Shown one piece after another: positions 1,322-30,110 of a DNA stretch of 61,225 nt. Source of the DNA: an uncultured Eubacteriales bacterium (GTDB lineage Bacteria > Bacillota > Clostridia > Oscillospirales > Acutalibacteraceae); NCBI GenBank assembly GCA_900316455.1, contig ONCX01000003.1:1-61225 (forward strand). The letters run 5' to 3'. The notes beneath the pieces were generated by a model. It was given only the letters and a program-made list of their open reading frames with translations, ran no database searches and had not been told where the DNA came from. Each line of letters opens with the position of its first letter. The stretch's first letter is position 1. Both the position numbers and the translations under genes were made by a program.

Positions 1322-2662
1322 TTAATAAATTGAAAGATATCTGTCTATTTCCCATTCGGTAACGGCTGTACGGAAACTGTTCCACTCGGCTTTCTTGCCT
1401 GCCACATAGCTCTTGTAAACATGGTCGCCAAGAACGCCGACGATGTATTTGTCCGCCTCGAGAGCGTCGAGAGCCTCCTTGAGATTGCCTGGGAGACTGT
1501 CAATGCCGACAGCCCTTCTGTCCTGCTTCGTCATAGCATAGATATCGTCGCTTATCTGATCGACGGGAACCATATTGTTCTTTATGCCGTCAAGACCCGC
1601 GGCAATGCAGACCGCAAGCTCAAGATACGGATTGCACGCCGGATCGGGATTGCGAAGCTCCACACGGGTTCCCGCACCTCTGGAAGCCGGAATCCTGATA
1701 AGCGCGGAGCGGTTGCTCGCAGACCACGCAATATAACAGGGGGCTTCAAATCCTGGCACAAGACGCTTATATGAATTCACGAGGGGATTTGTAATGGCAG
1801 CCATGCCCTTGACATGCTTCATAAGACCGGCAATGAAATTATAAGCAACCTCGGAAAGTCCAAGACCCTTTGGATCGTCAGGATCGCAGAACGCGTTCTT
1901 GCCGTCAAGCGTGCAGAGGGAAATATTTGTGTGCATACCGGAACCGCAAACGCCGTAACGGGGCTTAGGCATGAATGTGGCATAAAGTCCGTGACGGTAT
2001 GCGACAGCCTTCACAGTCAGCTTGAATGTCATGATATTGTCGGCAGTCGTCAGAGCGTCGTCATACTTGAAGTCAACCTCGTGCTGAGCCTCCGCGACCT
2101 CGTGATGAGAGGCTTCTATCTCAAAGCCCATCTGACCGAGAGTAGTGCAAATATCGCGGCGGCAGTCCTCGCCCATATCGGTAGGAGCAAGGTCGAAGTA
2201 GCTCGCCTCGTCATAGCTGTTTGTAGTCGCGTGACCGTGCTCGTCGGTATCAAAGAGGAAGAATTCGGCTTCAGGACCTATGTTTACAGTGTAGCCCATT
2301 TCCTCGGCTTCCTTGAGGACACGCTTGAGCACATATCTCGGATCGCCCTCAAAAGGTGTTCCGTCCGGCTTGTAAACGTCGCAGATAAATCTGGCGACCT
2401 TGCCGTTCTGGGGTCTCCACGGGAATATCACGAAAGAATCAATATCAGGTCTGAGATACATGTCGGATTCCTCGATACGCACAAAGCCCTCGATGGAAGA
2501 GCCGTCGAACATACACTGATTGTCAAGGCACTTTTCGAGCTGGCTGACAGTGATTGCCACGTTCTTCATGTGACCGAAGGTATCTGTGAACTGAAGGCGT
2601 ATGAATTTTACGTCCTCTTCCTTGACTATCCTTACGATGTCCTCTCTGGTATACTTTGCCAT
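1322..2662 (-). CDS. glnA: Glutamine synthetase, type I
   Basis: It converts glutamate, ammonia and ATP to glutamine, the main entry of ammonium. The 446-residue product starts [13 protein letters not shown] and has the beta-Grasp N-terminal domain (about 1-105) and the catalytic barrel. Metal- and ATP-site motifs include [18 protein letters not shown], the ammonium-site loop around [10 protein letters not shown] and the arginine loop near [12 protein letters not shown]. The size and absence of an adenylylation-type extension fit the Firmicutes GSI-alpha form. The ATG at 2662 has GGAGG ten bases upstream; the frame is open to 2722, but that would read back through a terminator hairpin. A consensus promoter at 2760-2788 and the hairpin at 2701-2736 suggest control by attenuation. 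Confidence 0.97.
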
Positions 2663-2669
2663 AAACAAA

Positions 2670-2738
2670 TCAACCTCCAAAATAATAGCTTGAAAATGAG
2701 AAAAAGGCGTCCGGAAAAACAACTTTCCCGAACGCCAT
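2670..2738 (-). CDS. Possible 22-codon leader peptide upstream of glnA
   Basis: An ATG at 2738 preceded by GGAG with 4-base spacing opens a 22-residue frame ([13 protein letters not shown], then Ser/Tyr/Gly-rich). It reads through the terminator hairpin and ends with TGA at 2672-2670, inside or just after the glnA ribosome site. A translating ribosome would melt the hairpin, so translation could govern readthrough. No glutamine codon run is visible and the frame is short, so it may be chance. Confidence 0.3.
2701..2736 (-). terminator. Leader terminator (candidate attenuator) between the glnA promoter and glnA
   Basis: On the minus strand GGCGTTCGGGAAA pairs with TTTTTCCGGACGCC and is followed by TTTTT. 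It lies downstream of the glnA promoter (2760-2788) and 23 bases before the GGAGG of glnA. It could end purA transcripts, but transcripts from the glnA promoter must also pass it, which is the arrangement of an attenuator. Confidence 0.75.
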
Positions 2739-2759
2739 TGTTCTCCAAAGCATGCACTA

Positions 2760-2788
2760 ATTCTATCACAGCCGAACGGTCATGTCAA
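2760..2788 (-). promoter_or_regulatory. Vegetative promoter of glnA-purC
   Basis: Minus strand: TTGACA (2788-2783), 17-base spacer, TAGAAT (2765-2760). Predicted start near 2753, giving a leader of about 90 bases that contains the terminator hairpin. Confidence 0.8.
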
Positions 2789-2889
2789 TGAGTTCATCAC
2801 AAATTCCGCAAATTCTGCCGATTGAACCAAAAGCCGCCGTGCGTTCTTGAATTTTTAGGCAAATAACATATCACGACCGATTCAGGGAA

Positions 2890-4167
2890 TTATCTGTAGA
2901 TAACCTCGTCTCTGCCAGGACCGTTCGATACAATGTCTATCGGGAAACCGATCTGACCTTCTATGAATTCTATGTATCCACGGCAGTTTTCCGGCAGCTC
3001 GTCATATGATCTTATGCCGCGCACATCGCACTTCCAGCCCGGAAGAGTCTGCAATACGGGCTTTGCCTTTGCCAGAAGGTGAGTGACGGGGAATTCATGC
3101 GTTATCTTGCCGTCGATTTCATATCCGACACAGACGGGGATTTCGTCAAGATATCCCATAACGTCAAGGCAGGTCATAGCGACCTTGGTCGTACCCTGAG
3201 CCATGCAGCCGTACCGCGTGGCAACGCAGTCGAACCAGCCGACGCGGCGGGGTCTGCCTGTAGTCGCGCCGTACTCTCCCCTGTCGCCTCCGCGTCTGCG
3301 AAGATCCTCAGCCTCGTCTCCGAATATCTCGCTGACAAACTCGCCCGCGCCGACAGCGCTTGAATACGCCTTTGTCACAGTAATTACCTCGCTGATAGCC
3401 CTCGCGGGAATACCCGCGCCAACAGCGCCGTAGCCCGCAAGCGTCGAGGACGAAGTGACCATGGGATAAATGCCGAAATCGGTGTCTTTAAGGGAGCCGA
3501 GCTGTCCCTCAAGCAGAATATTCTTATCCTCGCGGACTGCCTTCTGCAAAAACTCAAACGTATTTGCCACATAGGGCGCGACGATTTCTTTGCAGCGCAT
3601 GAGGTAGTCGAATATCTCCTGCTCAGAAATTTCCGGCTTTCCGTATAAATGCCTTATAAGCGTATTTTTAATATCCAGTACCTTCCTGACCTTTGCTCTC
3701 AGATATTCCTCGTCGGCAAAAAGCTCGTTGACCTGGAATCCGATCTTTGAATATTTATCTGAATAAAACGGTGCGATTCCGGATTTTGTGGAACCGAAAG
3801 CCTCGCCGCCAAGACGTTCCTCTTCATATACGTCAAAAAGGATATGATACGGCATAATAAGCTGTGCGCGCTCCGAAATCAGGATTTTTGGGGTAGGCAC
3901 TCCCTGTTCGGTGACAGCCGCAAGCTCCTTTTCAAATTTCAAAAGATCGAGTGCGACGCCGTTGCCTATAATATTTACAGTATGCTGATGGCAAACGCCC
4001 GACGGCAGCAAATGAAGTGCAAATCTGCCGAAATCATTTATAATGGTATGTCCTGCGTTGGCTCCGCCCTGAAAGCGAATAACAATATCCGACTCAGCGG
4101 CAAGCATATCAGTAATCTTCCCCTTGCCCTCGTCGCCCCAGTTAGCTCCGACTATAGCCTTAACCAA
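2890..4167 (-). CDS. purA: Adenylosuccinate synthetase
   Basis: It makes adenylosuccinate from IMP, aspartate and GTP, the first committed step to AMP. Seen: the P-loop GANWGDEGKGK at the very start, the GGANAGHT loop, the SSSTLAGYGAVGAG region and TTGRPRRVGWFD. With a TTG start at 4167 the protein is 425 residues, normal for the family and beginning exactly where PurA proteins do (VKAIVGANWG). A GGAG lies 11 bases upstream. A longer frame to a TTG at 4209 has no ribosome site. It has its own perfect promoter at 4251-4279. Downstream is glnA-purC, so three nitrogen/purine genes lie in one direction. Confidence 0.96.
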   Translation of the reverse strand: MVKAIVGANWGDEGKGKITDMLAAESDIVIRFQGGANAGHTIINDFGRFALHLLPSGVCHQHTVNIIGNGVALDLLKFEKELAAVTEQGVPTPKILISERAQLIMPYHILFDVYEEERLGGEAFGSTKSGIAPFYSDKYSKIGFQVNELFADEEYLRAKVRKVLDIKNTLIRHLYGKPEISEQEIFDYLMRCKEIVAPYVANTFEFLQKAVREDKNILLEGQLGSLKDTDFGIYPMVTSSSTLAGYGAVGAGIPARAISEVITVTKAYSSAVGAGEFVSEIFGDEAEDLRRRGGDRGEYGATTGRPRRVGWFDCVATRYGCMAQGTTKVAMTCLDVMGYLDEIPVCVGYEIDGKITHEFPVTHLLAKAKPVLQTLPGWKCDVRGIRSYDELPENCRGYIEFIEGQIGFPIDIVSNGPGRDEVIYR

Positions 4168-4250
4168 TTCACGCTCATCTCCGTTTTTCCTATTTAACAA
4201 TTTAATCAACTAACGGGCAGAATAAACAATGCTTTTTCTGCAACTCAAAT

Positions 4251-4279
4251 ATTATAGTACATTTTCCGTTTCATGTCAA
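4251..4279 (-). promoter_or_regulatory. Vegetative promoter of purA
   Basis: Minus strand: TTGACA (4279-4274), 17-base spacer, TATAAT (4256-4251). Predicted start near 4244, about 75 bases before the TTG start at 4167. Confidence 0.85.
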
Positions 4280-4404
4280 CGGAGAATTATACATTTTTAC
4301 GACATTTCTCATATTTCTCACCTGAATTCTTGTTATTATAATAATATTCAGTAGCAGCATTCATATCATTGCGAAAAATATAACAAAATTCAGGCAGGAA
4401 TTAG

Positions 4405-4433
4405 TTTACATTTACCGACAACTGTGATAAAAT
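4405..4433 (+). promoter_or_regulatory. Promoter of the orphan gene at 4465
   Basis: TTTACA (4405-4410), 17 bases, TAAAAT (4428-4433). The ATG at 4432 lies inside the -10 box, which argues that translation starts further down, at the TTG at 4465. Confidence 0.65.
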
Positions 4434-4464
4434 GGTTATATATAAAAAGCTGGAGTGGTTTGAA

Positions 4465-4911
4465 TTGACTGCATATGAACAAATGGCAAAATTTGAAATC
4501 GGTCTTGACATGGGACTTCTTACATTGGACGAGCTGAGGGAATTTATCAACGGCGCGTTAAAGCAAAAGGAAGTGCCTTATATCTACACCGACGTGTTCC
4601 TCTCGCTTGACAAGGGGCAGGAGGAAGTCATAAACGTGATATTCTACAATCTACAGGGCAATTATACCGCCGACAGGAACGCGGGCAACACTGTACAGCG
4701 TTCACTCATCGGAATAATTCGCGACAAATATCGCGCCGGCACGATTGACAAGGAACGGTGCGTCGAATTGCTCCACCGCCTGACCGACTATTCCGACGGC
4801 GATTGGAACCTTCTCTCAATCGACGAGTATTACAAGCTGAACAAAACCGGCTACTGCTCCGACGCGGATTTTGAGGAAAGTCTCAAGGGCATTTTCGACA
4901 TGGGAATATAA
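4465..4911 (+). CDS. Hypothetical acidic cytoplasmic protein, 148 residues
   Basis: I do not recognise this gene. The TTG at 4465 is preceded by GGAG at 9-base spacing and by a good promoter; the longer ATG at 4432 overlaps the -10 box. The protein is soluble, with no signal peptide or membrane segment, and rich in Asp/Glu/Leu/Tyr. It looks mostly helical, with an N-terminal segment FEIGLDMGLLTLDELREF and a C-terminal 'YYKLNKTGYCSDADFEESLKGIF' character. A faint resemblance to DUF2247-like small proteins was considered, not established. It is monocistronic, between its own promoter and a strong terminator, and divergent from purA. Confidence 0.75.
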   Translation: MTAYEQMAKFEIGLDMGLLTLDELREFINGALKQKEVPYIYTDVFLSLDKGQEEVINVIFYNLQGNYTADRNAGNTVQRSLIGIIRDKYRAGTIDKERCVELLHRLTDYSDGDWNLLSIDEYYKLNKTGYCSDADFEESLKGIFDMGI

Positions 4912-4938
4912 CCGCATAGCTATCATCATTTACAACAT

Positions 4939-4992
4939 AAAAAAGCAAAGCGCATTCATTCACCTAAGTGGATCATGTTTGCTTTGCTTTTT
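4939..4992. terminator. Bidirectional terminator between the 4465 gene and argJ
   Basis: AAAAAAGCAAAGC pairs with GCTTTGCTTTTT around a roughly 29-base loop. T-runs exist in both directions, so it can serve the plus-strand gene and argJ. Confidence 0.75.
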
Positions 4993-5020
4993 ATTTGCGC
5001 TGATTATTTGAGAGAAATAA

Positions 5021-6268
5021 TTATGTTCTGTAATCGCCGTTTATCTTAACGTAATCATATGTCAGATCACAGCCCCACGCCTTTGCGGAGCATTCGCCCT
5101 GATGCAGGTCTATCATAATAAAAATCTCGTCGGCGGAAAGAACCTTGGCGGCTTCCTCCTCGGAAAATTCAATTCCGGCGCCTTGGCGGCATACCGAAAC
5201 GGTTCCTTTTTCTGAGGAAATATCGACGTCAACCCTGTCTATGTCAAAATCAGCCTCCGCATAGCCTACAGCGCAGAGTATTCTGCCCCAGTTTGCGTCC
5301 TCGCCGAAGAACGCGCACTTTACAAGCGGAGAACGTATCACGCTCTTGGCAACAGTGATAGCGCAGTCAAGAGAAGGGGCTCCGGAGCATTTGCATTCAA
5401 TAAGCTTGCTTGCGCCCTCGCCGTCCTTTGCGAGCATGCGCGTCAAATTCATCATTACAAAGTACAAAGCAGATCTGAATTCGGAATAATCGGCGCATTC
5501 AGCGGTAATTTCGTCATTTCCCGCAAGACCGCTCGCCATCAGAAGCACGCAGTCGTTGGTTGAGGTATCCCCGTCAACGCTGAGACAGTTGTACGTCACC
5601 TTAACCACGTCCGAAAGAGCCCTTTGCAGCATTTCGGGACTCACGGCGGCGTCAGTAGTAATAAAATTCAATGTGGTAGCCATATTGGGGTGAATCATTC
5701 CGCTGCCCTTAGCCATGCCGCCCATTCTGCACGCTCTGCCGCCAAGCTCGAATTCCACGGCGATTTCCTTCATCACCGTATCGGTCGTCATGATCGCGTT
5801 GGCAGCCCTGCCGTGATTTTCGGGCGAAAGACCTGCCGCAAGCTCTTCTATATGTCGGGCGACAGGCTCTATCGGGAGTATCTGACCTATTACGCCTGTA
5901 GACGCGACAACAATTTCTTTCGGATCCACACCAAGCGCCTTTGCGGCGAGCGAGCACATCATTTCCGCCTTTTCAACGCCGTCGGCATTGCAGGTATTGG
6001 CGTTCTTGCTGTTGGCAATGAATCCCCGCGTCCTGCCTCCGCAGGCGGCAAGGTGTTCCTTTGTCACCAGAAGCGGTGCGCCTTTGACCTTGTTAGTTGT
6101 ATATACCGCGGCGGCATTGCACATAACGTCGCATACCACAAGCCCAAGGTCATTCTTGTTTTTATCACTGTTGAGACCGCAGTTAACGCCGTTTGCCCTG
6201 AAGCCCTCAGCGGCGCACACGCCGCCGTCAATGGTGGGGAACTGCTTTTCTTCTATTGCGTTTATCAT
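5021..6268 (-). CDS. argJ: Bifunctional glutamate N-acetyltransferase / ornithine acetyltransferase
   Basis: ArgJ recycles the acetyl group from N-acetylornithine to glutamate in arginine synthesis. The 415-residue precursor cleaves itself into two chains before a threonine in the conserved 'KGSGMIxPNMAT' block. Here it reads KGSGMIHPNMATTL, so the nucleophilic threonine is present, although the next residue is Thr rather than the usual Met. The N-terminal CNAAAVYTTNKVKGAP and later NTNDC-type 'GDTSTND' motifs fit. The ATG at 6268 is chosen; a TTG at 6280 sits too close to the GAGGA site. It starts 8 bases after the rnhB stop, so it is the last gene of the lepB-rbgA-rnhB-argJ run. No other arg genes are nearby. 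Confidence 0.95.
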   Translation of the reverse strand: MINAIEEKQFPTIDGGVCAAEGFRANGVNCGLNSDKNKNDLGLVVCDVMCNAAAVYTTNKVKGAPLLVTKEHLAACGGRTRGFIANSKNANTCNADGVEKAEMMCSLAAKALGVDPKEIVVASTGVIGQILPIEPVARHIEELAAGLSPENHGRAANAIMTTDTVMKEIAVEFELGGRACRMGGMAKGSGMIHPNMATTLNFITTDAAVSPEMLQRALSDVVKVTYNCLSVDGDTSTNDCVLLMASGLAGNDEITAECADYSEFRSALYFVMMNLTRMLAKDGEGASKLIECKCSGAPSLDCAITVAKSVIRSPLVKCAFFGEDANWGRILCAVGYAEADFDIDRVDVDISSEKGTVSVCRQGAGIEFSEEEAAKVLSADEIFIMIDLHQGECSAKAWGCDLTYDYVKINGDYRT

Positions 6269-22781: not shown

Positions 22782-22809
22782 TTGACTTTATTTGTATGTG
22801 TGGTATAAT
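22782..22809 (+). promoter_or_regulatory. Promoter of the glycosyltransferase / VYGPP lipoprotein locus
   Basis: TTGACT (22782-22787), 16 bases, TATAAT (22804-22809), about 75 bases before the ATG at 22889. It diverges from the mgtE promoter. No other promoter was seen up to the flippase gene, so it may drive the whole locus. Confidence 0.75.
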
Positions 22810-22888: not shown

Positions 22889-23836
22889 ATGAATATTCAT
22901 GTAATCGGCACGGTAAACGGCGAGGTCAATGAGGGCATGAGAAACATCGCCACACACATTTCCCGCGCATTCGAGAAGGAACACACCGTTATTTATTCCG
23001 GACTCAGACAGCTTCCTAAAATTGTTTTCGACTCCAAAAAGGCTGACGTAACAATTATTTTCGCTTGGGCTGACAAGCGTATATACGAGCTTGTCAGGGC
23101 TGTCTCCGCTATCTGTACTAACGTCTGGGTGGTGCTGGTTCAGAAGCCCGCCGAAGAATTCTTTGAGCTTACACGCGATAATCCTCTCGGGTGCAGCTAT
23201 CTCTACATATTCGATGACGATGTTAAAGGGCTTAATGTGGCTGAGGGCAAAACCATCAGACGCTTCTCCGTCGGAATTAATACTGAAAAATTTGTCCCTC
23301 CCGCGGGTATTGACGTCGGGGAACTCAAGAAAAAATACGGCTTCGACCCTGAACTTCCCCTCCTGCTGCACGTCGGTCATTGCTCCGGCGGCAGGGGTCT
23401 CGAAGACTTTTTGCAGATAAAAAATGCTCAACGCCTCATTATAGCAAGCGGCATGTTCGAGGACGAAGCCCTCGTAAAGGCTCTTGAGGACGACGGCGTT
23501 ACAATCATGTCGGGATATCTCGAAAACGTCGAGGAAATATTCCAGATGTCCGACGCTTACCTCTTCCCCACCCGCAGCTCAGACAACGTGATCAGCATTC
23601 CGCTTTCCGTCATGGAGGCGCTCGCCTGCGGCGTTCCGGTTATCGGCTACCGTTCGTTTGTCAATTTCAGCGGTATAGGCTGCGCGGACGGCGCGGTATC
23701 ATTCATAGATTCGCCTGAGGAAATCGACGCAATACTTCCGGACGTGATCGCAAAAAAATCATGCGAATCAATGCTGAAAAACACAGGCACATGGGACGAC
23801 GCCGCAAATGAAATTCTTGGCGTAATCTCACAGTAA
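22889..23836 (+). CDS. Glycosyltransferase family 4-like
   Basis: The 315-residue protein is shorter than typical GT-B enzymes (about 370-400) but shows their C-terminal half clearly: LLLHVGHCSGGRGLEDF, a middle segment on degree of exposure, and MEALACGVPVIGYRS with the donor-site E-x7-E type environment. The N-terminal half has a Rossmann-like start (MNIHVIGTVNGEVNEGM). No signal or membrane segment is visible. The ATG at 22889 has GGAGG; the frame extends to 22577, but the promoter lies within that stretch, so the longer start is rejected. It leads the run of lipoproteins, radical SAM enzyme and flippase, hinting at glycan or lipid-linked sugar chemistry. Donor and acceptor are unknown. 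Confidence 0.82.
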   Translation: MNIHVIGTVNGEVNEGMRNIATHISRAFEKEHTVIYSGLRQLPKIVFDSKKADVTIIFAWADKRIYELVRAVSAICTNVWVVLVQKPAEEFFELTRDNPLGCSYLYIFDDDVKGLNVAEGKTIRRFSVGINTEKFVPPAGIDVGELKKKYGFDPELPLLLHVGHCSGGRGLEDFLQIKNAQRLIIASGMFEDEALVKALEDDGVTIMSGYLENVEEIFQMSDAYLFPTRSSDNVISIPLSVMEALACGVPVIGYRSFVNFSGIGCADGAVSFIDSPEEIDAILPDVIAKKSCESMLKNTGTWDDAANEILGVISQ

Positions 23837-23865
23837 TCCTGACAGATTCAGGAGGTGGAATTATT

Positions 23866-24105
23866 ATGAAAAAAAACAGGGCGCTTGCCGCGGCAATGGC
23901 TTCAATTGCGCTTACCGGCGCACTTGGCTCCTGCTCGTTCGCTCCTGACGAAAACGTGGAGGAGGACGTATACGGTCCGCCGCAGCCGTATGAGGATCCC
24001 ATTGACGAGCCGGAATCCGTTGGAGAGCCTGAGTCGGCGGGGGAATACGATCCTGAAGAAAACATGGAGCCGGAAGTATACGGTCCGCCCGAAGCTTTCG
24101 GATAA
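23866..24105 (+). CDS. Small VYGPP-motif lipoprotein A1 (candidate radical SAM substrate)
   Basis: The 79-residue protein has a lipoprotein signal with lipobox LGSC (Cys23). The mature 57-residue part is very acidic and proline-rich, with two copies of a VYGPP motif (residues 35-39 and 71-75), each followed by a small or aromatic residue. Its first 23 residues are nearly identical to those of the next gene, showing recent duplication. AGGAGGTGG precedes the ATG. Small lipoproteins with a (V/M)YG-P motif paired with a radical SAM/SPASM enzyme are known as rSAM/lipoprotein systems; the chemistry installed is, as far as I know, undescribed. Membership is inferred from motif and context. Confidence 0.82.
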   Translation: MKKNRALAAAMASIALTGALGSCSFAPDENVEEDVYGPPQPYEDPIDEPESVGEPESAGEYDPEENMEPEVYGPPEAFG

Positions 24106-24153
24106 ACCGTAATCCGATCTTAATTATTATTCGTTATCAGGAGGTAATTTGTT

Positions 24154-24387
24154 ATGAAGAAAAGCAGAATTTTAGCAGCGGCTATGGCTTCAATCGCGCT
24201 TACCGGCGCGCTTGCTTCTTGTGGCAAGGACGAGGAATTCAATTCGGAAGATAACGCAAACGTCTGCGTTTACGGTCCGCCTCCCGCATACAGCGACGAA
24301 ACGGGCGACAACAGCGCGGACGGTCAGGAGTATTTTGATACAAGCTCCGCCGATGAAGAACCGGCAGCGGATTCTCAGGGTGAATAA
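24154..24387 (+). CDS. Small VYGPP-motif lipoprotein A2 (candidate radical SAM substrate)
   Basis: The 77-residue paralogue of the preceding gene has lipobox LASC (Cys23) and one motif, CVYGPPPAY (residues 38-46), with an extra cysteine directly before it. The rest is Asp/Glu/Ser-rich and disordered-looking. AGGAGG precedes the ATG. Its stop is one base from the radical SAM start, so the two genes are translationally coupled, as expected of a precursor and its maturase. Only the signal peptide and the VYGPP region are shared with A1, which picks out the motif as the likely recognition or modification site. Confidence 0.82.
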   Translation: MKKSRILAAAMASIALTGALASCGKDEEFNSEDNANVCVYGPPPAYSDETGDNSADGQEYFDTSSADEEPAADSQGE

Positions 24388-24388
24388 A

Positions 24389-25465
24389 ATGAATCCTGCC
24401 CAAGTTAAAATTATACACATGCGCCAGCTCGCCGAATACCGCAGAAGCATTATCGGCGCGCCGCCGCTGAAGAATCTCTTCCTTGAACTCACTCTCCGCT
24501 GCAACGAACGCTGCATTCACTGCGGCAGCAGGTGCGGCGAGCATGACAGGGTTAATGAGCTTTCCAAGGAACAATACAGGAAAATACTTGACGATGTTAA
24601 ACGCGACTTCGGTGTGAAACAGGTGGAGCTTGATATTACCGGAGGCGAACCGCTTCTTCGCAGGGATTTTTTTGATATAATGAGCTACGCCAATTCGCTC
24701 GGCTTCCGCTGGGGTATGACAAGCAACGCTACCCTTATAAACGACGATATCGCTCACAGGCTGCACGAATGCGGCATGAAAACCATCTCTGTAAGCATCG
24801 ACGGGCTTGAATCCACTCACGACTCACTGCGCGGAATGAACGGCGCTTTTTCCGGCGCTATGAGGGGAATTGACGCTTTGATTCGCCACGGTGGATTCCA
24901 GTCAATTCAGGTGACAACCGTTGTGAATCACCGGAATTTCAGCGAGCTTGATGAGCTGTTTGACATACTGTGCAAAATCGACATCGACTCATGGCGCGTA
25001 ATCAACATTGAGCCTATAGGCAGAGCGCTCGACTCTCCTGACCTTATGCTGACAAAGGACGAATACCGGCAAATGTTCGACTTCATCAGAGAAAAGCGAT
25101 TGCAGGGCTACCCTCTCACCTACGGCTGCAGCCATTATCTCGGTACAGAATACGAACGTCAGGTGAGACAATGGTACTTTTTGTGCAACGCCGGTATCTA
25201 CACCGCGAGCATCGCTTCAAACGGGGATATCCTTGCTTGTCTCGATATCGAACGCCGTCCGGAGCTTGTTCAGGGAAATATTCTCCGCGACAGCTTAAAG
25301 GAGATCTGGCAGAATAAATTTAAAATATTCCGCGGCGACCTCAGCGACCTGAACGAAAAGTGCCGCGCCTGCGACAGCTGCGAATTCTGTCACGGCGGAG
25401 CCCATCACAGCTGGGATTATGACCTCAACGAGCAGCGCGTCTGCTTCAAAGACATACTATTCTGA
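24389..25465 (+). CDS. Radical SAM/SPASM protein, rSAM/lipoprotein-system type
   Basis: The 358-residue protein has the radical SAM motif CNERCIHC (Cys38, Cys42, Cys45), the SAM-binding 'ITGGEPLLR' and 'SIDG' segments, and a C-terminal SPASM/twitch region (about 270-355). That region is Cys-rich: FLCNAG, LACLDIE, then KCRACDSCEFCHGG and a final Cys, enough for one or two auxiliary [4Fe-4S] clusters. Such enzymes modify ribosomally made peptides. The next cysteine, Cys49, adds to the N-terminal set. Tight coupling to lipoprotein A2 suggests the two lipoproteins are its substrates. The frame extends upstream to 24212, across A2, and that is rejected. No RRE domain or protease gene is seen. Confidence 0.9.
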   Translation: MNPAQVKIIHMRQLAEYRRSIIGAPPLKNLFLELTLRCNERCIHCGSRCGEHDRVNELSKEQYRKILDDVKRDFGVKQVELDITGGEPLLRRDFFDIMSYANSLGFRWGMTSNATLINDDIAHRLHECGMKTISVSIDGLESTHDSLRGMNGAFSGAMRGIDALIRHGGFQSIQVTTVVNHRNFSELDELFDILCKIDIDSWRVINIEPIGRALDSPDLMLTKDEYRQMFDFIREKRLQGYPLTYGCSHYLGTEYERQVRQWYFLCNAGIYTASIASNGDILACLDIERRPELVQGNILRDSLKEIWQNKFKIFRGDLSDLNEKCRACDSCEFCHGGAHHSWDYDLNEQRVCFKDILF

Positions 25466-25490
25466 CACTAAGTAAAAGGAGTCTGTTATT

Positions 25491-27077
25491 TTGAGAGGCG
25501 AAAAACTCTTTAAAAATACCGTTGTCGGCGTATTGTCTCAGGCAATCTCCGCTTTGACCGCGGCTATAGTTCAGCTTGTGTTCATCAGGTTCATGATAAA
25601 GGAATATTTAGGGGCAAAGAGTCTTTTCTCAAATATTCTCGATTTCCTGTCTCTCGCCGAGCTTGGCATAGGACTTGTGCTGGTCTACAGCATGTATCAG
25701 CCCCTCGCCGAAAAAAACGAACGCAAGCTCATTGCCCTGACTCAGTTCTATCGCAAGGCGTATCATCTGATAGCTGCGATGGTCTTCGGTTCAGGACTTT
25801 GCCTTATGCCGTTTTTATCGTTCTTCATAGAAAATATGGAATCGGTTCCTCATGCCCGCCTTATTTTCTTCATGTATCTTGTAAGCTCCGCATCATCATA
25901 TCTCTTTGTTTACAAGCAATCAATTCTCAACGCCGATCAGAGAATATATATAACCCATCTTTTCAGCATGGCGTTTTCCATAATACAATGCGTGTTGCAG
26001 ATAATCGTTCTGGTAAGCGGAAGCAAATATAAATTTTTCTACTACCTCATAGTGCAGACCGTAATGGTCGTATTCAAAAACTTCCTGCTCACGCGCAAGG
26101 CTGAAAGGCTTTATCCGTTCCTCAACAGCAGGGAAAAAATCCTGCTCACTAAGGACGAAAAAAAAGCGATCTACAAAAATGTGTTCGCTATGTTTAACCA
26201 CCGTGTCGGCGCGGTTGTACTCGGCTCAACAGATAATCTGCTTATTTCAAAATTCATTGGCATTATTTACTGCGGCTTCTACGGAAACTTCAAGATGATT
26301 GTCAACCTGCTCAACGCGTTCATCAGCCAGTTCTTCAACGCTATGCTTTCCAGCGTGGGAAATATGTCCGCGCTCGAATCAAAGGATACCGTCTACAAGA
26401 CATTCAAGTACCTGCATTTCCTGAGCTTCTGGATGCACACATTCTGCACTGTCGCTTTTATCGAGCTTGCCAATCCCGTCCTCATGCGCGTTCTCACTCT
26501 TATGGGTGTTGAGGACGTGCAGTCATACGGATTCACATTCCCCACAATACTTATGATAGGTCTGAATTTCTACATGATAGGTATACGCAAGGTTCCTCTC
26601 ACATTCAAGGAGGCTATGGGACTTCTGTGGTATGACCGCTACAAGCCGATTATAGAGGCGGTATTAAACGTTGTCGTTTCAATCGCCGCCATTCAGAAAA
26701 TGGGTATCGCCGGAATATTCTTCGGAACGATTTTCAGTATGGCAGCCACGTCTCTATGGGTGGAGCCGCTCGTGCTGTTCCGTCACGGACTCAAACGCTC
26801 TATGGGCGAATTCTGGGGAAAGGAATTTGTGTATCTGGCTTTTTCCGGCGGTATGATCGCGCTTACCCATTACGCGGACATACGGCTCGTTGACAACGCT
26901 CTGCGCCTGACCGGCTGGCCGGAGATATTCGCCAAGCTCGGAATATGCATTATCCTGCCAAACGCGCTGATCGCGCTCTGCTTCTGCCGTATGAAGGAAT
27001 TCGGCGAGCTTTTTACGGCTATAGGGCATATTGTCTTTAAGAAAAACAAGCCTCAAGCCATAGAAAGCGCGGGTTAA
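25491..27077 (+). CDS. Polysaccharide/oligosaccharide flippase-like membrane protein (MOP superfamily)
   Basis: The 528-residue protein has about 12-14 membrane segments. Its N-terminal RGEKLFKNTVVGVLSQ and 'QLVFIRFMIKEYLGAKSLF' resemble Wzx-type exporters that flip lipid-linked oligosaccharides. A gene for a sugar polymerase or other wzx/wzy partners is not adjacent. The TTG start at 25491 has AAAGGAG at 9-base spacing. It follows the radical SAM gene by 25 bases and may belong to the same operon as the glycosyltransferase. Transport of a glycan made by that enzyme, or of another lipid-linked product, is inference. Confidence 0.8.
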   Translation: MRGEKLFKNTVVGVLSQAISALTAAIVQLVFIRFMIKEYLGAKSLFSNILDFLSLAELGIGLVLVYSMYQPLAEKNERKLIALTQFYRKAYHLIAAMVFGSGLCLMPFLSFFIENMESVPHARLIFFMYLVSSASSYLFVYKQSILNADQRIYITHLFSMAFSIIQCVLQIIVLVSGSKYKFFYYLIVQTVMVVFKNFLLTRKAERLYPFLNSREKILLTKDEKKAIYKNVFAMFNHRVGAVVLGSTDNLLISKFIGIIYCGFYGNFKMIVNLLNAFISQFFNAMLSSVGNMSALESKDTVYKTFKYLHFLSFWMHTFCTVAFIELANPVLMRVLTLMGVEDVQSYGFTFPTILMIGLNFYMIGIRKVPLTFKEAMGLLWYDRYKPIIEAVLNVVVSIAAIQKMGIAGIFFGTIFSMAATSLWVEPLVLFRHGLKRSMGEFWGKEFVYLAFSGGMIALTHYADIRLVDNALRLTGWPEIFAKLGICIILPNALIALCFCRMKEFGELFTAIGHIVFKKNKPQAIESAG

Positions 27078-27800: not shown

Positions 27801-28928
27801 TTACCAGTTGTGGTGAACCGCATAGCTGTCCAACTGAAGTCCTTCTAAACTGTAGCCCTGGGAATAAATATATTCTATTATCATAGGAAGCGCCTCAACA
27901 GTCGTCCTTTTGGATTCTCCGGCGTCGTGCATAAGAATATCCGGCTTGCGGTATTTTGTCAGCGATTTTTTTACATTTTCAAGCAGCTTGTCGGGCGCAA
28001 GATTGTAATACTCCGCGTCGCAGCTGTCCACGTTCCAGTCGTGATATACATATCCTCTCGCCGGAACGCTCTTTTTCAGCGTGTCCATTATACCCTGACA
28101 GTAGTGTCTGCTGACGGTATTGCTCGAGCCGCCAGGGAACCGGATTATTTTAGTCCGCTTGCCTGTCAGCCGGTAAACATAATTTCCTATGCGGTCTATT
28201 TCTTTAAAAAACGCGTTTTCGCTCCGGTAAACCTTATCGTATTTATGAGTAAATGTGTGAAGACCTATCGTATGTCCACGGTCAACTATCGCCTTATACT
28301 TATCCTCCATATCCTTGTGATATATCACAAAGAACGTCGCCTTCGCGTCGTAATAATCGAGTACGTCAAGAATCGCGTCGGTATATTCAGACGGACCGTC
28401 GTCAAATGTCAGATAAGCTACATATCCCTCTTTATGCGGAATGAAGTTGATATATTTGTCATTCGGAAGTATGAGATGCTTTTTCTCCGGCTCCTCAGAA
28501 ACAACAGCCTCCGATGAAGACGCTTCGGATTCAGTCGAAATTTCCGGCACGGACGATACGGCTTCTGCTTCCGAAGATACTTCATTCTCAGAAGAAACCG
28601 CGGGTTCGGCGGACGATACTTCCTCGATTTGTGAGGAGACAGGCTCCGACGTCTTTTTTATCTCAGGCGATTCTTTTTTGATGTCGAGATCAGACGCGCT
28701 CACCATGCGATACTTCAGACCGTTCTCCTCCATTACATTCGATTTTCTCACCTTAGGTCCGGTTGCGACGGAGCCTTCGTCCGACAAACCTTCTGAATTA
28801 ATGATCCCACCGACATTCTCCCGCACGTTTATAAGCGACACAGAAAAACACCCTATCATAAACGCCGCTATAAGCACGAGCGGTATATAAAACGAAATTG
28901 TCGAGCCTTGTTCTTTTTTTCCTTTCAC
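27801..28928 (-). CDS. Polysaccharide deacetylase, NodB-type, membrane-anchored
   Basis: The 375-residue protein has a short cytoplasmic N-terminus, one membrane segment (about 12-32), a Ser/Glu-rich linker (about 95-165), then a NodB homology domain. Metal and catalytic motifs are TFDDGPS, the H-x3-H metal pair HTFTH, and RFPGGSSN. The C-terminal LMHD motif is also present. It should deacetylate a cell-wall amino sugar or exopolysaccharide outside the membrane. A GTG at 28928 has GGAGG at 7 bases; an ATG at 28934 overlaps the site. It is a tandem paralogue of the next gene and both end in an H-N-W tripeptide. Confidence 0.9.
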   Translation of the reverse strand: MKGKKEQGSTISFYIPLVLIAAFMIGCFSVSLINVRENVGGIINSEGLSDEGSVATGPKVRKSNVMEENGLKYRMVSASDLDIKKESPEIKKTSEPVSSQIEEVSSAEPAVSSENEVSSEAEAVSSVPEISTESEASSSEAVVSEEPEKKHLILPNDKYINFIPHKEGYVAYLTFDDGPSEYTDAILDVLDYYDAKATFFVIYHKDMEDKYKAIVDRGHTIGLHTFTHKYDKVYRSENAFFKEIDRIGNYVYRLTGKRTKIIRFPGGSSNTVSRHYCQGIMDTLKKSVPARGYVYHDWNVDSCDAEYYNLAPDKLLENVKKSLTKYRKPDILMHDAGESKRTTVEALPMIIEYIYSQGYSLEGLQLDSYAVHHNW

Positions 28929-28962
28929 ACACATTCCTCCTTTGAGCCATTCTGGACATGAA

Positions 28963-29976
28963 TTACCAGTTATGCTGAATTGCCTCGGATTCAATCGTAA
29001 GCGGTTCTATTTTGTAGCCCTCCGCCTGAACAGCCTCGATTATTCTCGGCAGCGCTTCAACTGTGGTCGTCTTGGATTTGCCGGTGTCGTGCATCAATAT
29101 GTCAACCACCGGCTTTTTCTTTTGCAGACCCGCCTTTACCTTTTCCACCAGCAGATCCGGATCACGGTTGATTCCGCTCGCGTCGGTACTGTCTACATTC
29201 CAGTCGTGAAAAACATAGCCGTTTTCTGTAACGGATTTTTTAAGCGTCTTCATTATGCTTTTATTGTACTTCCTGCTGACGGTGTTGCTCGAACCTCCGG
29301 GGAATCGGATTATCTTTGAGTCTACGCCAGTTACCTCCTCCACGTAATCGTGAATTTTATTCAGATCGTTATAATATCCCTTCTCCGTGCGGTAAATCTT
29401 GCTGTAGCTGTGAGAATAGCTGTGCAGCGCGATGGTATTGCCCCTGTCCACTATCGCCTTGTATTTGCTCTCCATATTCTTATGATATATCACAAAAAAT
29501 GTCGCCTTGACGTCGTACTGATCCAGAATGTCAAGCAGCTTCTCGGTATTGATCGACGGACCGTCGTCAAACGTGAGATAAGCTATCTTTTCATCGCTGC
29601 TTCTGATGGTCTTTGTGGTTGAAGTGGTTTTGCTCTCTGTCGTGGACGTGCTTGCTGTAGTCGAATCGCCTTTTGTTGAATTCGCGGTAGTACCTGTAAC
29701 AGCTTGACTGGTCTTACTCTCAGCGGCGGTGGCACTGCTTGTGGAATCCGCGGTGTTTTTTGTAATCACATAATATTTAACGCCGTTTTTTCCCTCGGTC
29801 TCCACAAATTCATACCCGTTTCCCGAACCTCCCTCGTAAGCCGTTTCGTCTTCAACGGCATAGGAATTGACCGGTTTGTTCGTAATTGTTGCCAATGTAA
29901 TTGCAAACGCCACAAGCAAAATTCCAAACGTTGCTAAAATAGGAACATATATGTACTTTCCGCCCTGTCTTCTCAT
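28963..29976 (-). CDS. Polysaccharide deacetylase, NodB-type, membrane-anchored (paralogue)
   Basis: This 337-residue paralogue has the same plan: membrane segment about 10-33, a Ser/Thr/Lys-rich linker (about 80-125, low complexity) and a NodB domain with TFDDGPS, HSYSH and RFPGGSSN, plus LMHD near the end. The deacetylase domains are about half identical by eye, while the linkers differ in composition (Thr-rich here, Ser/Glu-rich in the other). An ATG at 29976 follows AGGTGG; a longer frame to 30003 lacks one. The pair is 34 bases apart and probably cotranscribed, this one first. A role in peptidoglycan or spore cortex modification is inference. Confidence 0.9.
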   Translation of the reverse strand: MRRQGGKYIYVPILATFGILLVAFAITLATITNKPVNSYAVEDETAYEGGSGNGYEFVETEGKNGVKYYVITKNTADSTSSATAAESKTSQAVTGTTANSTKGDSTTASTSTTESKTTSTTKTIRSSDEKIAYLTFDDGPSINTEKLLDILDQYDVKATFFVIYHKNMESKYKAIVDRGNTIALHSYSHSYSKIYRTEKGYYNDLNKIHDYVEEVTGVDSKIIRFPGGSSNTVSRKYNKSIMKTLKKSVTENGYVFHDWNVDSTDASGINRDPDLLVEKVKAGLQKKKPVVDILMHDTGKSKTTTVEALPRIIEAVQAEGYKIEPLTIESEAIQHNW

Positions 29977-30110
29977 AATTATCGTTCCACCTTTTTGCAT
30001 CAATAAGCTTAAAATTATTTTATCTCCAAAACATCAGCATATTCCAAATAAAGTATATTCACCATCGACACAATAATTCCGCATAGCTCAATAATCTTCT
30101 CCGCGCTTAA

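What the first reader, a model, noticed from the sequence alone, without database searches (positions are those of the whole stretch)
23866..25465. Two VYGPP lipoproteins translationally linked to a radical SAM/SPASM enzyme: candidate peptide-modification system
Seen: two adjacent small lipoprotein genes share almost identical signal peptides and a VYGPP motif (two copies in the first, one with a preceding Cys in the second). The second stops one base before a radical SAM enzyme with CNERCIHC and a Cys-rich SPASM region. Known: radical SAM/SPASM enzymes often modify ribosomal peptides, and rSAM/lipoprotein systems are recognised as families without, to my knowledge, a defined product. Inferred: the VYGPP Tyr/Pro (and Cys38 in A2) are the modification sites and the product is surface-displayed. 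A glycosyltransferase upstream and a flippase downstream, possibly one operon, are unusual partners.
Basis: partly seen in the sequence, partly recalled or inferred. Interest (0 to 1): 0.85.

Follow-up and report, generated by a model that had tools for sequence, protein, structure and literature searches.

The report
Splicease-like enzyme and VYGPP surface proteins
A rumen-type bacterium makes small surface proteins carrying a Val-Tyr-Gly-Pro-Pro tag beside a radical enzyme that probably cuts most of the tyrosine out of the backbone, leaving a reactive ketone that may block proteases.

Summary
Two small lipoproteins with three VYGPP copies sit directly upstream of a radical SAM/SPASM enzyme. 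The pairing is far wider than the window: 72 of 80 related enzyme loci have a YGPP frame within 1.5 kb (247 copies), while the 11 other permutations of YGPP and 4 substituted forms reach 0-2 of 80 loci each. Within these proteins no [VL]xGPP or [VL]YxPP variant occurs, against 2 and 11 changes at single prolines, so Tyr-Gly looks like the reaction centre. The preceding Cys is not conserved; the glycosyltransferase and flippase accompany the enzyme only in its five closest relatives. In a tree these enzymes group (98/96) with nif11_3-type and GDL enzymes and share a CxxxCxxC-GS signature. PlpX-type 'spliceases' excise tyramine from Xaa-Tyr-Gly, leaving an alpha-keto-beta-amino residue. My best reading is that this enzyme splices VYGPP in exported proteins. 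Relatives place the motif on lipoproteins, DUF805 membrane proteins, zinc ribbons and dockerin proteins, including those of Ruminococcus flavefaciens. A protease-inhibitor role is inferred. The chemistry is unshown, and a 2022 splicease survey that may cover this group was not readable here.

The parts
23866..24105 (+). VYGPP lipoprotein A1 (79 aa): signal peptide with lipobox-like LGSC, motif copies FAPDENVEEDVYGPPQPY and YDPEENMEPEVYGPPEAF
   Evidence: no convincing Pfam or NCBIfam match
23971..23981 (+). YGPP codons, copy 1 (predicted splice site V-Y-G)
24079..24089 (+). YGPP codons, copy 2
24154..24387 (+). VYGPP lipoprotein A2 (77 aa): signal peptide nearly identical to A1, one motif copy FNSEDNANVCVYGPPPAY
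24271..24281 (+). YGPP codons, copy 3
24389..25465 (+). radical SAM/SPASM enzyme (358 aa), candidate splicease; CNERCIHCGS signature, no PqqD/RRE match reported in the protein
22889..23836 (+). glycosyltransferase (group 1) upstream, possibly co-transcribed; kept only in the five closest relatives
25491..27077 (+). flippase-like membrane protein (TTG start) downstream, possibly co-transcribed; kept only in the five closest relatives; family assignment weak (WZX_like E 0.15)
22782..22809 (+). sigma-70-like promoter (TTGACT-16-TATAAT, TG before -10) about 80 bases before the glycosyltransferase, candidate operon promoter
   Evidence: consensus match only

Best explanation
The enzyme at 24389-25465 is a splicease-type radical SAM/SPASM protein that acts in the cytoplasm on the VYGPP motifs of A1 and A2, encoded immediately before it. 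By analogy with PlpX it would remove the tyramine part of Tyr (C8H9NO, -135.08 Da) and rejoin Val to the Tyr carbonyl, leaving Val-alpha-ketoamide-Gly-Pro-Pro: an alpha-keto-beta-amino residue. The proteins are then exported, A1/A2 are lipid-anchored, and the electrophilic ketoamides (P1 Val or Leu) are shown on the surface, where they most plausibly trap Ser/Cys proteases. Shown here: the enzyme-motif pairing, invariance of Tyr-Gly among [VL]-type motif copies, a shared clade with nif11_3-type enzymes, a shared XYG motif, signal peptides. Inferred: the reaction, its order relative to export, and the anti-protease role. My probabilities: YGPP proteins are the substrates 0.93; tyramine excision 0.72; protease trapping 0.4.
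For: (1) YGPP lies in a same-strand frame within 1.5 kb in 72 of 80 named relatives' loci, 247 copies; the 11 other permutations and FGPP, WGPP, YAPP, YSPP score 0-2 of 80; loose YG.P 73 against reversed P.GY 6. 12 of 12 heme-pathway-type radical SAM control loci have no YG.P frame in their 1.5 kb flanks. In 69 of the 72 the nearest YGPP frame is upstream, in 56 of those 69 within 60 nt of the enzyme match. (2) 19 of 19 enzyme matches in 15 of 300 family genomes have an adjacent motif: 15 with YG.P, 4 zinc ribbons with YGP[MR]P. (3) Of five full-context loci without an adjacent motif, three have a likely substrate elsewhere in the same genome: L098 a 5-copy lipoprotein, L077 a 3-copy DUF805-like protein, L086 a zinc ribbon with CVYGPP. 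(4) Among 99 YGPP frames, [VL]xGPP 0 and [VL]YxPP 0, against 2 and 11 for single changes at the two Pro positions and 14 with both Pro changed. (5) Tree: 33 rows (window type, Bacteroidota/Treponema TIGR04133, nif11_3-like, GDL) on one side of a branch, 98/96, against 12 others. (6) The annotated nif11_3 maturase of Nostoc C057 has a precursor ending ALYGLPPELF; PlpXY excises tyramine at XYG, naturally at MYG and LYG, does not need the leader, and was used with tags of the form PIRP[LG]YGLPI (passages of PMC10533398; passage of PMC11002830).
Against: No mass spectrum or assay exists. By NCBIfam score the window enzyme is nearest TIGR04133 (279 bits, below the 425 cut-off), and heme b synthase (164), mycofactocin maturase (138), NirJ2 (136) and TIGR04053 (134) outscore nif11_3 (132). 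PlpX works with an RRE protein, PlpY; no PqqD match was found in this genome (88.6% complete), so recognition must differ. PlpXY is choosy about context: in the FtsZ table of PMC10533398 only 2 of 16 inserted tags were accepted, and the LYG ones were not. GDL-type neighbours in the same clade have YG in only 3 of 6 candidate precursors, so the clade is not strictly XYG. X is Glu or Cys in the three TIGR04133 lipoproteins. Two of 80 loci (L070, L108) have no substrate found; for L070's genome only 5 of 25 codon matches were looked at. One of the 72 (L093) rests on a small frame 1.3 kb away. Invariance was measured on proteins chosen for holding a YGPP, though 74 of 99 hold two or more copies. 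Nothing here shows protease binding, and no neighbour beyond the YGPP gene is conserved.
Confidence: 0.72

Rival explanations
1. The enzyme uses the YGPP tyrosine for another radical reaction, for example a Tyr-Val or Tyr-Cys crosslink or an oxidative decarboxylation-like step as in mycofactocin, without removing tyramine.
For: Mycofactocin maturase, which acts on a Val-Tyr pair, is the third-best family hit (138 bits) and, with PqqE, is sister to the clade in the tree, though on long branches. V or L precedes Tyr in 89% of windows.
Against: MftC acts on a C-terminal Tyr (mftA ends GVY), whereas here Tyr is internal and followed by an unvaried Gly, as in XYG splicing. MftC lacks the CGS signature and falls outside the clade. 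Cys stands at -2 in only 14% of windows, so a Cys crosslink cannot be general.
Confidence: 0.15
2. YGPP is only a docking or recognition tag; the reaction happens elsewhere in the protein or on another molecule.
For: The flanking sequences vary widely, being mostly acidic or Thr-rich (by reading), and PlpXY itself depends on context.
Against: Copy number runs from 1 to 7 per frame, and the carriers share little else (lipoprotein, dockerin, DUF805, zinc ribbon). A tag would be expected to tolerate F for Y or A for G at times; no such case among [VL]-type copies.
Confidence: 0.08
3. The pair is a pseudo-association: a Pro-rich surface protein that happens to share an operon with the enzyme.
For: The two genes are adjacent, which alone proves nothing.
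Against: 72 of 80 loci against 0-2 of 80 for control motifs; variant motifs follow enzyme subclades (ribbon 100/98, YGCP 100/97); likely substrates found elsewhere in genomes whose enzyme has none beside it.
Confidence: 0.02
4. Same splicing chemistry, but the product serves for covalent attachment, metal binding or signalling rather than protease inhibition.
For: A ketoamide has general reactivity (PMC10533398 uses it for labelling); many substrates are lipid-anchored, and some relatives carry the motif on zinc ribbons without signal peptide, where trapping external proteases makes no sense.
Against: Spliceotide products are described as protease inhibitors (PMC11117315 passage citing Scott 2022), and cellulosomes are known to carry serpins, proposed to protect them (PMC5301203 passages).
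Confidence: 0.35

Closest known systems
Spliceotides / PlpXY splicease (nif11-class radical SAM maturase 3; that PlpX belongs to TIGR04103 is recalled, the review gives IPR026482)
   Same: Radical SAM/SPASM enzyme, Xaa-Tyr-Gly site, often followed by x-Pro, leader not required; nif11_3-type enzymes share the clade and the CGS signature here.
   Different: Substrates are mostly exported lipoproteins, dockerin or membrane proteins rather than nif11/NHLP-leader peptides; no RRE partner found; sequence score to TIGR04103 only 132 against a cut-off of 725.
TIGR04133 / TIGR04134 (radical SAM protein with associated lipoprotein, Bacteroidota and Treponema)
   Same: Best family hit; lipoprotein gene beside the enzyme; the three lipoproteins examined carry YGSP, YGTP or YGMP. 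That TIGR04134 is the lipoprotein model is recalled.
   Different: Window enzyme is below the family cut-off (279 of 425) and branches apart from the three; those lipoproteins carry one YGxP soon after the signal peptide followed by a longer region, not repeated VYGPP.
GDL-motif (DUF1843) peptide maturases, TIGR03913
   Same: Same clade and CGS signature; some candidate precursors have Tyr-Gly.
   Different: Short peptides; 3 of 6 precursors lack Tyr-Gly.
Mycofactocin maturase MftC
   Same: Radical SAM/SPASM acting on a Val-Tyr pair (PMC8326336 passage).
   Different: Tyr is C-terminal; MftB encoded beside it; no CGS; outside the clade.

Membership tests
Splicease / spliceotide system | Tyramine excision leaving an alpha-keto-beta-amino residue | not testable with these tools
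   needs mass spectrometry
Splicease / spliceotide system | Xaa-Tyr-Gly motif in the substrate beside the enzyme | tested here: met
   72 of 80 loci YGPP; Tyr and Gly unvaried in [VL]-type copies
Splicease / spliceotide system | Enzyme groups with PlpX-type (nif11_3) enzymes | tested here: met
   33 rows as one side of a branch, 98/96; within it the window type and TIGR04133 form a 27-row branch (99/97) apart from nif11_3/GDL; PlpX itself not included
Splicease / spliceotide system | RRE partner (PlpY) | tested here: not met
   no PqqD-family match in the genome, 88.6% complete; a divergent RRE cannot be excluded
Splicease / spliceotide system | nif11 or nitrile-hydratase-like leader | tested here: not met
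   A1, A2 have lipoprotein-type signal peptides and no such family match
TIGR04133 (rSAM_w_lipo) | score above curated cut-off 425 | tested here: not met
   279 bits, best family hit
TIGR04133 (rSAM_w_lipo) | adjacent lipoprotein gene | tested here: met
   A1 and A2 upstream
TIGR04133 (rSAM_w_lipo) | lipoprotein of the associated NCBIfam family | tested here: not met
   A1 and A2 have no such match up to E 1
Sactipeptide / ranthipeptide | Cys-rich precursor with thioether donors | tested here: not met
   A1 has no Cys besides the lipobox; Cys at -2 in 14% of windows
Mycofactocin | C-terminal Val-Tyr and MftB chaperone | tested here: not met
   internal Tyr; no PqqD-type gene found

The most novel reading that the evidence does not exclude
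Gut and rumen Clostridia splice tyrosine out of whole exported proteins at repeated VYGPP sites and mount the resulting ketoamide warheads on the membrane by lipid anchors and on the cellulosome by dockerins, as a fixed multivalent shield against proteases that parallels the serpins of other cellulosomes. If so, part of the unexplained 'unknown-dockerin' proteins of Ruminococcus flavefaciens are backbone-spliced inhibitors, and the radical SAM/lipoprotein systems of type TIGR04133 are spliceases.
Probability: 0.33. Interest if true: 0.85.

Novelty: new variant of a known kind. Interest (0 to 1): 0.62.

Why it matters
It turns an unassigned enzyme-lipoprotein pairing into a one-experiment prediction (-135.08 Da per VYGPP). 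If true, a backbone-splicing reaction described mainly for leader-borne peptides is applied to exported, anchored and dockerin-bearing proteins in gut Clostridia, without the usual recognition protein. It also offers a short VYGPP tag with its own enzyme for protein labelling, and a role for some unexplained dockerin proteins of fibre-degrading rumen bacteria.

Tried and rejected
Rejected: Cys-Tyr crosslink as the general reaction (Cys at -2 in 14% of 268 windows). Rejected: glycosyltransferase and flippase as part of the system (window and L030-L034, 6 of 81 loci each; the clustering recognised the enzyme in 70 of 81 loci). Rejected: chance association (controls). Looked for and not found: relatives in viral contigs (none); a PqqD gene or a dockerin in the window's own genome, so the dockerin link holds for relatives, not for this organism; Rfam families in the window (none). 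A close pair of codon matches in the genome of L086 was not a YGPP protein in the stretch read; a different single match there was a zinc ribbon. Of 4 matches in the genome of L108 none looks like a substrate, and of 25 in that of L070 the 5 held as loci do not either. Solved structures: nearest by sequence is SkfB (97 bits), which did not help to decide the reaction. Rows dropped: TIGR04053 failed to enter the first tree and was added; two distant own-genome SPASM rows were left out.

Literature (open-licence PubMed Central only): TIGR04133, TIGR04134, rSAM_w_lipo, the product name and IPR026404 occur in 0 papers; three of ketoamide, tyramine, lipoprotein, radical SAM: 0 papers; two of YGPP, radical SAM, SPASM: 60 papers, none of the 15 listed holds YGPP; YGPP with Ruminococcus: 24 papers, 10 listed, titles and abstract starts seen only, none of those on this topic; three of PlpX and related terms: 52 papers, 10 listed. 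Morinaka 2018 and Scott 2022, the main splicease papers, were not held and are known to me by recall and through citing papers, so prior description of this group cannot be ruled out. Of the papers cited I saw listings and passages found by term search, none in full.

Full report
What is there. The described genes are at the stated places. Two small signal-peptide proteins, A1 and A2, are followed after a single base by a 358-residue radical SAM/SPASM enzyme. Neither lipoprotein has a convincing Pfam or NCBIfam match. The three YGPP sites are more than chance for the window: 3 codon matches against a mean of 0.35 in shuffles, none of 100 reaching 3. Reading the three copies side by side gives a longer shared pattern: aromatic at -11, P or S at -9, N at -6, V at -1, then Y-G-P-P and an aromatic at +6. 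In 266 windows from relatives an aromatic stands at -11 in 129, N at -6 in 102, and both in 82 against 49.5 expected if independent; an aromatic stands at +6 in 129 (copies within a protein are related, so this is a description, not a test).

The pairing is general. In 300 genomes of the window's family, 15 have an enzyme match at E 1e-40 or better, 19 places in all. All 19 have an adjacent open frame with the motif: 15 with YG.P, and 4 zinc-ribbon proteins with YGPMP or YGPRP. Outside the family the enzyme is rare: TIGR04133 at E 1e-60 rings in 2 of 398 genomes sampled across the phylum, the window's own and one other; that other has a lipoprotein with VYGPP twice beside the enzyme. A scan of named genomes gave the 80 best loci (576 confirmed relatives, so this is a top slice; titles name mainly Ruminococcus, Oscillospiraceae and Lachnospiraceae from herbivore guts). 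In 72 of the 80 a same-strand YGPP frame lies within 1.5 kb, with 247 copies. The other 11 permutations of YGPP and FGPP, WGPP, YAPP and YSPP reach 0-2 of 80; the looser YG.P reaches 73 and its reverse P.GY 6. The nearest YGPP frame is upstream in 69, downstream in 3 and absent in 8; 56 of the 69 end within 60 nt of the enzyme match, and one of the downstream three (L093) is a small frame 1.3 kb away that may be chance. Of the 8 without, two are cut by the contig end (L075, L096), one has the zinc-ribbon YGPMP form (L107) and five have full context. Three of those five have a likely substrate elsewhere in the genome: L098 a lipoprotein with 5 copies, L077 a DUF805-like protein with 3, L086 a 99-residue zinc ribbon with FDPFDNGITCVYGPP. 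L070 and L108 remain without one. The Val-Tyr-Gly-Pro-Pro codon pattern in 300 family genomes forms close clusters in only 5 genomes, all with the enzyme (read by eye); two more enzyme-bearing genomes with YGPP lipoproteins give one match (G280) and none (G091, Leu form). Twelve control loci of heme-pathway-type radical SAM enzymes (one of them above the AhbD cut-off) have no YG.P frame in their flanks.

Which residues matter. In 99 YGPP frames there are 274 YGPP copies. Windows with V or L followed by a changed Tyr or a changed Gly before PP: none. Changed first Pro only: 2. Changed second Pro only: 11. Both Pro changed: 14. X is V in 69% and L in 20% of 268 distinct windows; Cys at -2 is 14%. 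The frames were selected for holding YGPP, but 74 of 99 have two or more copies that were free to vary. So Tyr-Gly is the constrained core, as in XYG splicing.

Kinship of the enzyme. NCBIfam ranks TIGR04133 first (279 bits, cut-off 425), then heme b synthase 164, mycofactocin maturase 138, NirJ2 136, TIGR04053 134 and, sixth, nif11_3 132. A tree with 45 rows puts the window type, the Bacteroidota/Treponema TIGR04133 proteins, nif11_3-like, GDL and one Agathobacter protein (33 rows) on one side of a branch with 98/96 support. NirJ, PqqE, MftC, TIGR04053, seven AhbD-like and one Paenibacillus protein (12 rows) lie on the other; PqqE and MftC are long branches. An earlier 39-row tree with fewer outgroups gave the same 33-row side, also 98/96. 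All 33 have CxxxCxxC followed by GS, none of the 12 does. Nine of the 33 rows came from a scan one of whose two search patterns included CGS, so the signature is independent for the other 24. Substrate forms follow enzyme subclades: zinc ribbon 100/98, YGCP peptides 100/97.

Link to splicing. PlpX with its RRE partner PlpY excises tyramine from Xaa-Tyr-Gly and reconnects the chain (PMC11002830, passage). The mass loss is 135.08 Da, natural sites are MYG and LYG, a ten-residue tag can suffice, no leader is needed, and 27 other characterised and 939 predicted systems are reported (PMC10533398, passages). Tags there have the form PIRP[LG]YGLPI, but in FtsZ only 2 of 16 tag placements were accepted, both GYG, so context matters. 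The Nostoc nif11_3 enzyme here has a precursor ending ALYGLPPELF, and the three TIGR04133 lipoproteins examined have YGSP, YGTP or YGMP, with Glu, Glu and Cys before the Tyr. A distant nif11_3-like enzyme in the window's family has an NHLP-leader protein with EYGAPSY beside it. Against this, three of six GDL-type precursors lack Tyr-Gly, no PqqD match was found in the window's genome, and the enzyme is far below the nif11_3 cut-off.

Where the motif is carried. By a simple signal-peptide heuristic on 99 frames, 46 look like lipoproteins, 12 have another early Cys, 25 a plain export signal and 16 none (start sites are uncertain). Of 10 proteins chosen for Pfam, 9 hold YGPP and one (L069:2346-3179) holds LYGAP. 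Type I dockerin is found in 6 of the 9 and in the LYGAP one, DUF805 in 2 and Big_2 in 1; one dockerin hit is exactly at the cut-off. A regex, which misses two of these, finds dockerin-like repeats in 18 of 99 frames in 9 of 81 loci. The dockerin cases include Ruminococcus flavefaciens strains XPD3002 (L064) and YL228 (L069). In strain FD-1, 118 dockerin proteins have regions of unknown function (PMC2930009, passages), and a cellulosomal serpin is proposed to protect the complex from proteolysis (PMC5301203, passages). Spliceotide products are described as protease inhibitors (PMC11117315, passage). This is the basis for the proposed role, which remains inference. The window's own genome has no dockerin match.

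Surroundings. A near-consensus promoter precedes the glycosyltransferase, and spacing from 22889 to 27077 fits one operon, untested. The glycosyltransferase and flippase recur only in L030-L034, whose enzymes are 82-87% identical to the window's. Apart from the enzyme and the YGPP protein, same-strand neighbour clusters span at most 7 loci of 81 (clusters were not annotated, and the enzyme was recognised in 70 of 81). They are best seen as local passengers.

Verdict. The most likely reaction is tyramine excision as in spliceotides, at 0.72; the anti-protease role is about 0.4. It is a new variant of a known kind, with the caveat that the 2022 survey of spliceases could not be read.

Noticed in passing
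G000:C28 / L002:1474-2577 and 2574-2978: Second enzyme copy (47% identical) in the window's genome, overlapping a zinc-ribbon gene with CIYGPMP between Cys pairs; the same kind of zinc-ribbon frame beside the enzyme in three same-genus genomes (L024-L026), suggesting a zinc-binding substrate without signal peptide.
   Followed up: partly
L134:1351-1650 (genome of L086, Butyrivibrio sp. INlla16): Zinc ribbon with FDPFDNGITCVYGPP not beside the enzyme gene; it combines the zinc-ribbon carrier with the lipoprotein-type motif.
   Followed up: partly
L017, L020, L021 (rSAM genes and flanks): Enzymes with a C-terminal extension of roughly 190 residues; in L017 and L020 it ends in YYGxxxxQAKLI.PEV, echoing the YYGCPNSKKAxKL end of their adjacent peptides, as if the enzyme carried a mimic of its substrate.
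   Followed up: no
L040:3615-4001, L048:3534-4001: YGPP proteins whose signal peptide has a twin-arginine-like TRR[EQ]FTAAG motif, so export by Tat is possible.
   Followed up: no
L168 (Tropicibacter oceani plasmid) 2174-5865: A GDL/nif11_3-type radical SAM gene followed by a trypsin-like peptidase and an M23 peptidase, with no Tyr-Gly precursor seen.
   Followed up: no
L113:2722-2935 (Agathobacter rectalis plasmid): Short frame ending LFGPVMYGTGVRM upstream of an enzyme of the same clade, a possible MYG splice site.
   Followed up: no
L164:945-1583, L094:3240-3941, L102:3302-3952: Membrane proteins of DUF805 type (Pfam for L094 and L102, by likeness for L164) with YGPP copies in the part after the membrane domain, an unexpected carrier.
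   Followed up: partly
window 27801-30003, minus strand: Two adjacent polysaccharide deacetylase-like genes downstream.
   Followed up: no
window 22723-22695, minus strand: Perfect consensus promoter (TTGACA-17-TATAAT with TG) more than 300 bases before the magnesium transporter mgtE gene; no Rfam family matched at gathering score.
   Followed up: partly
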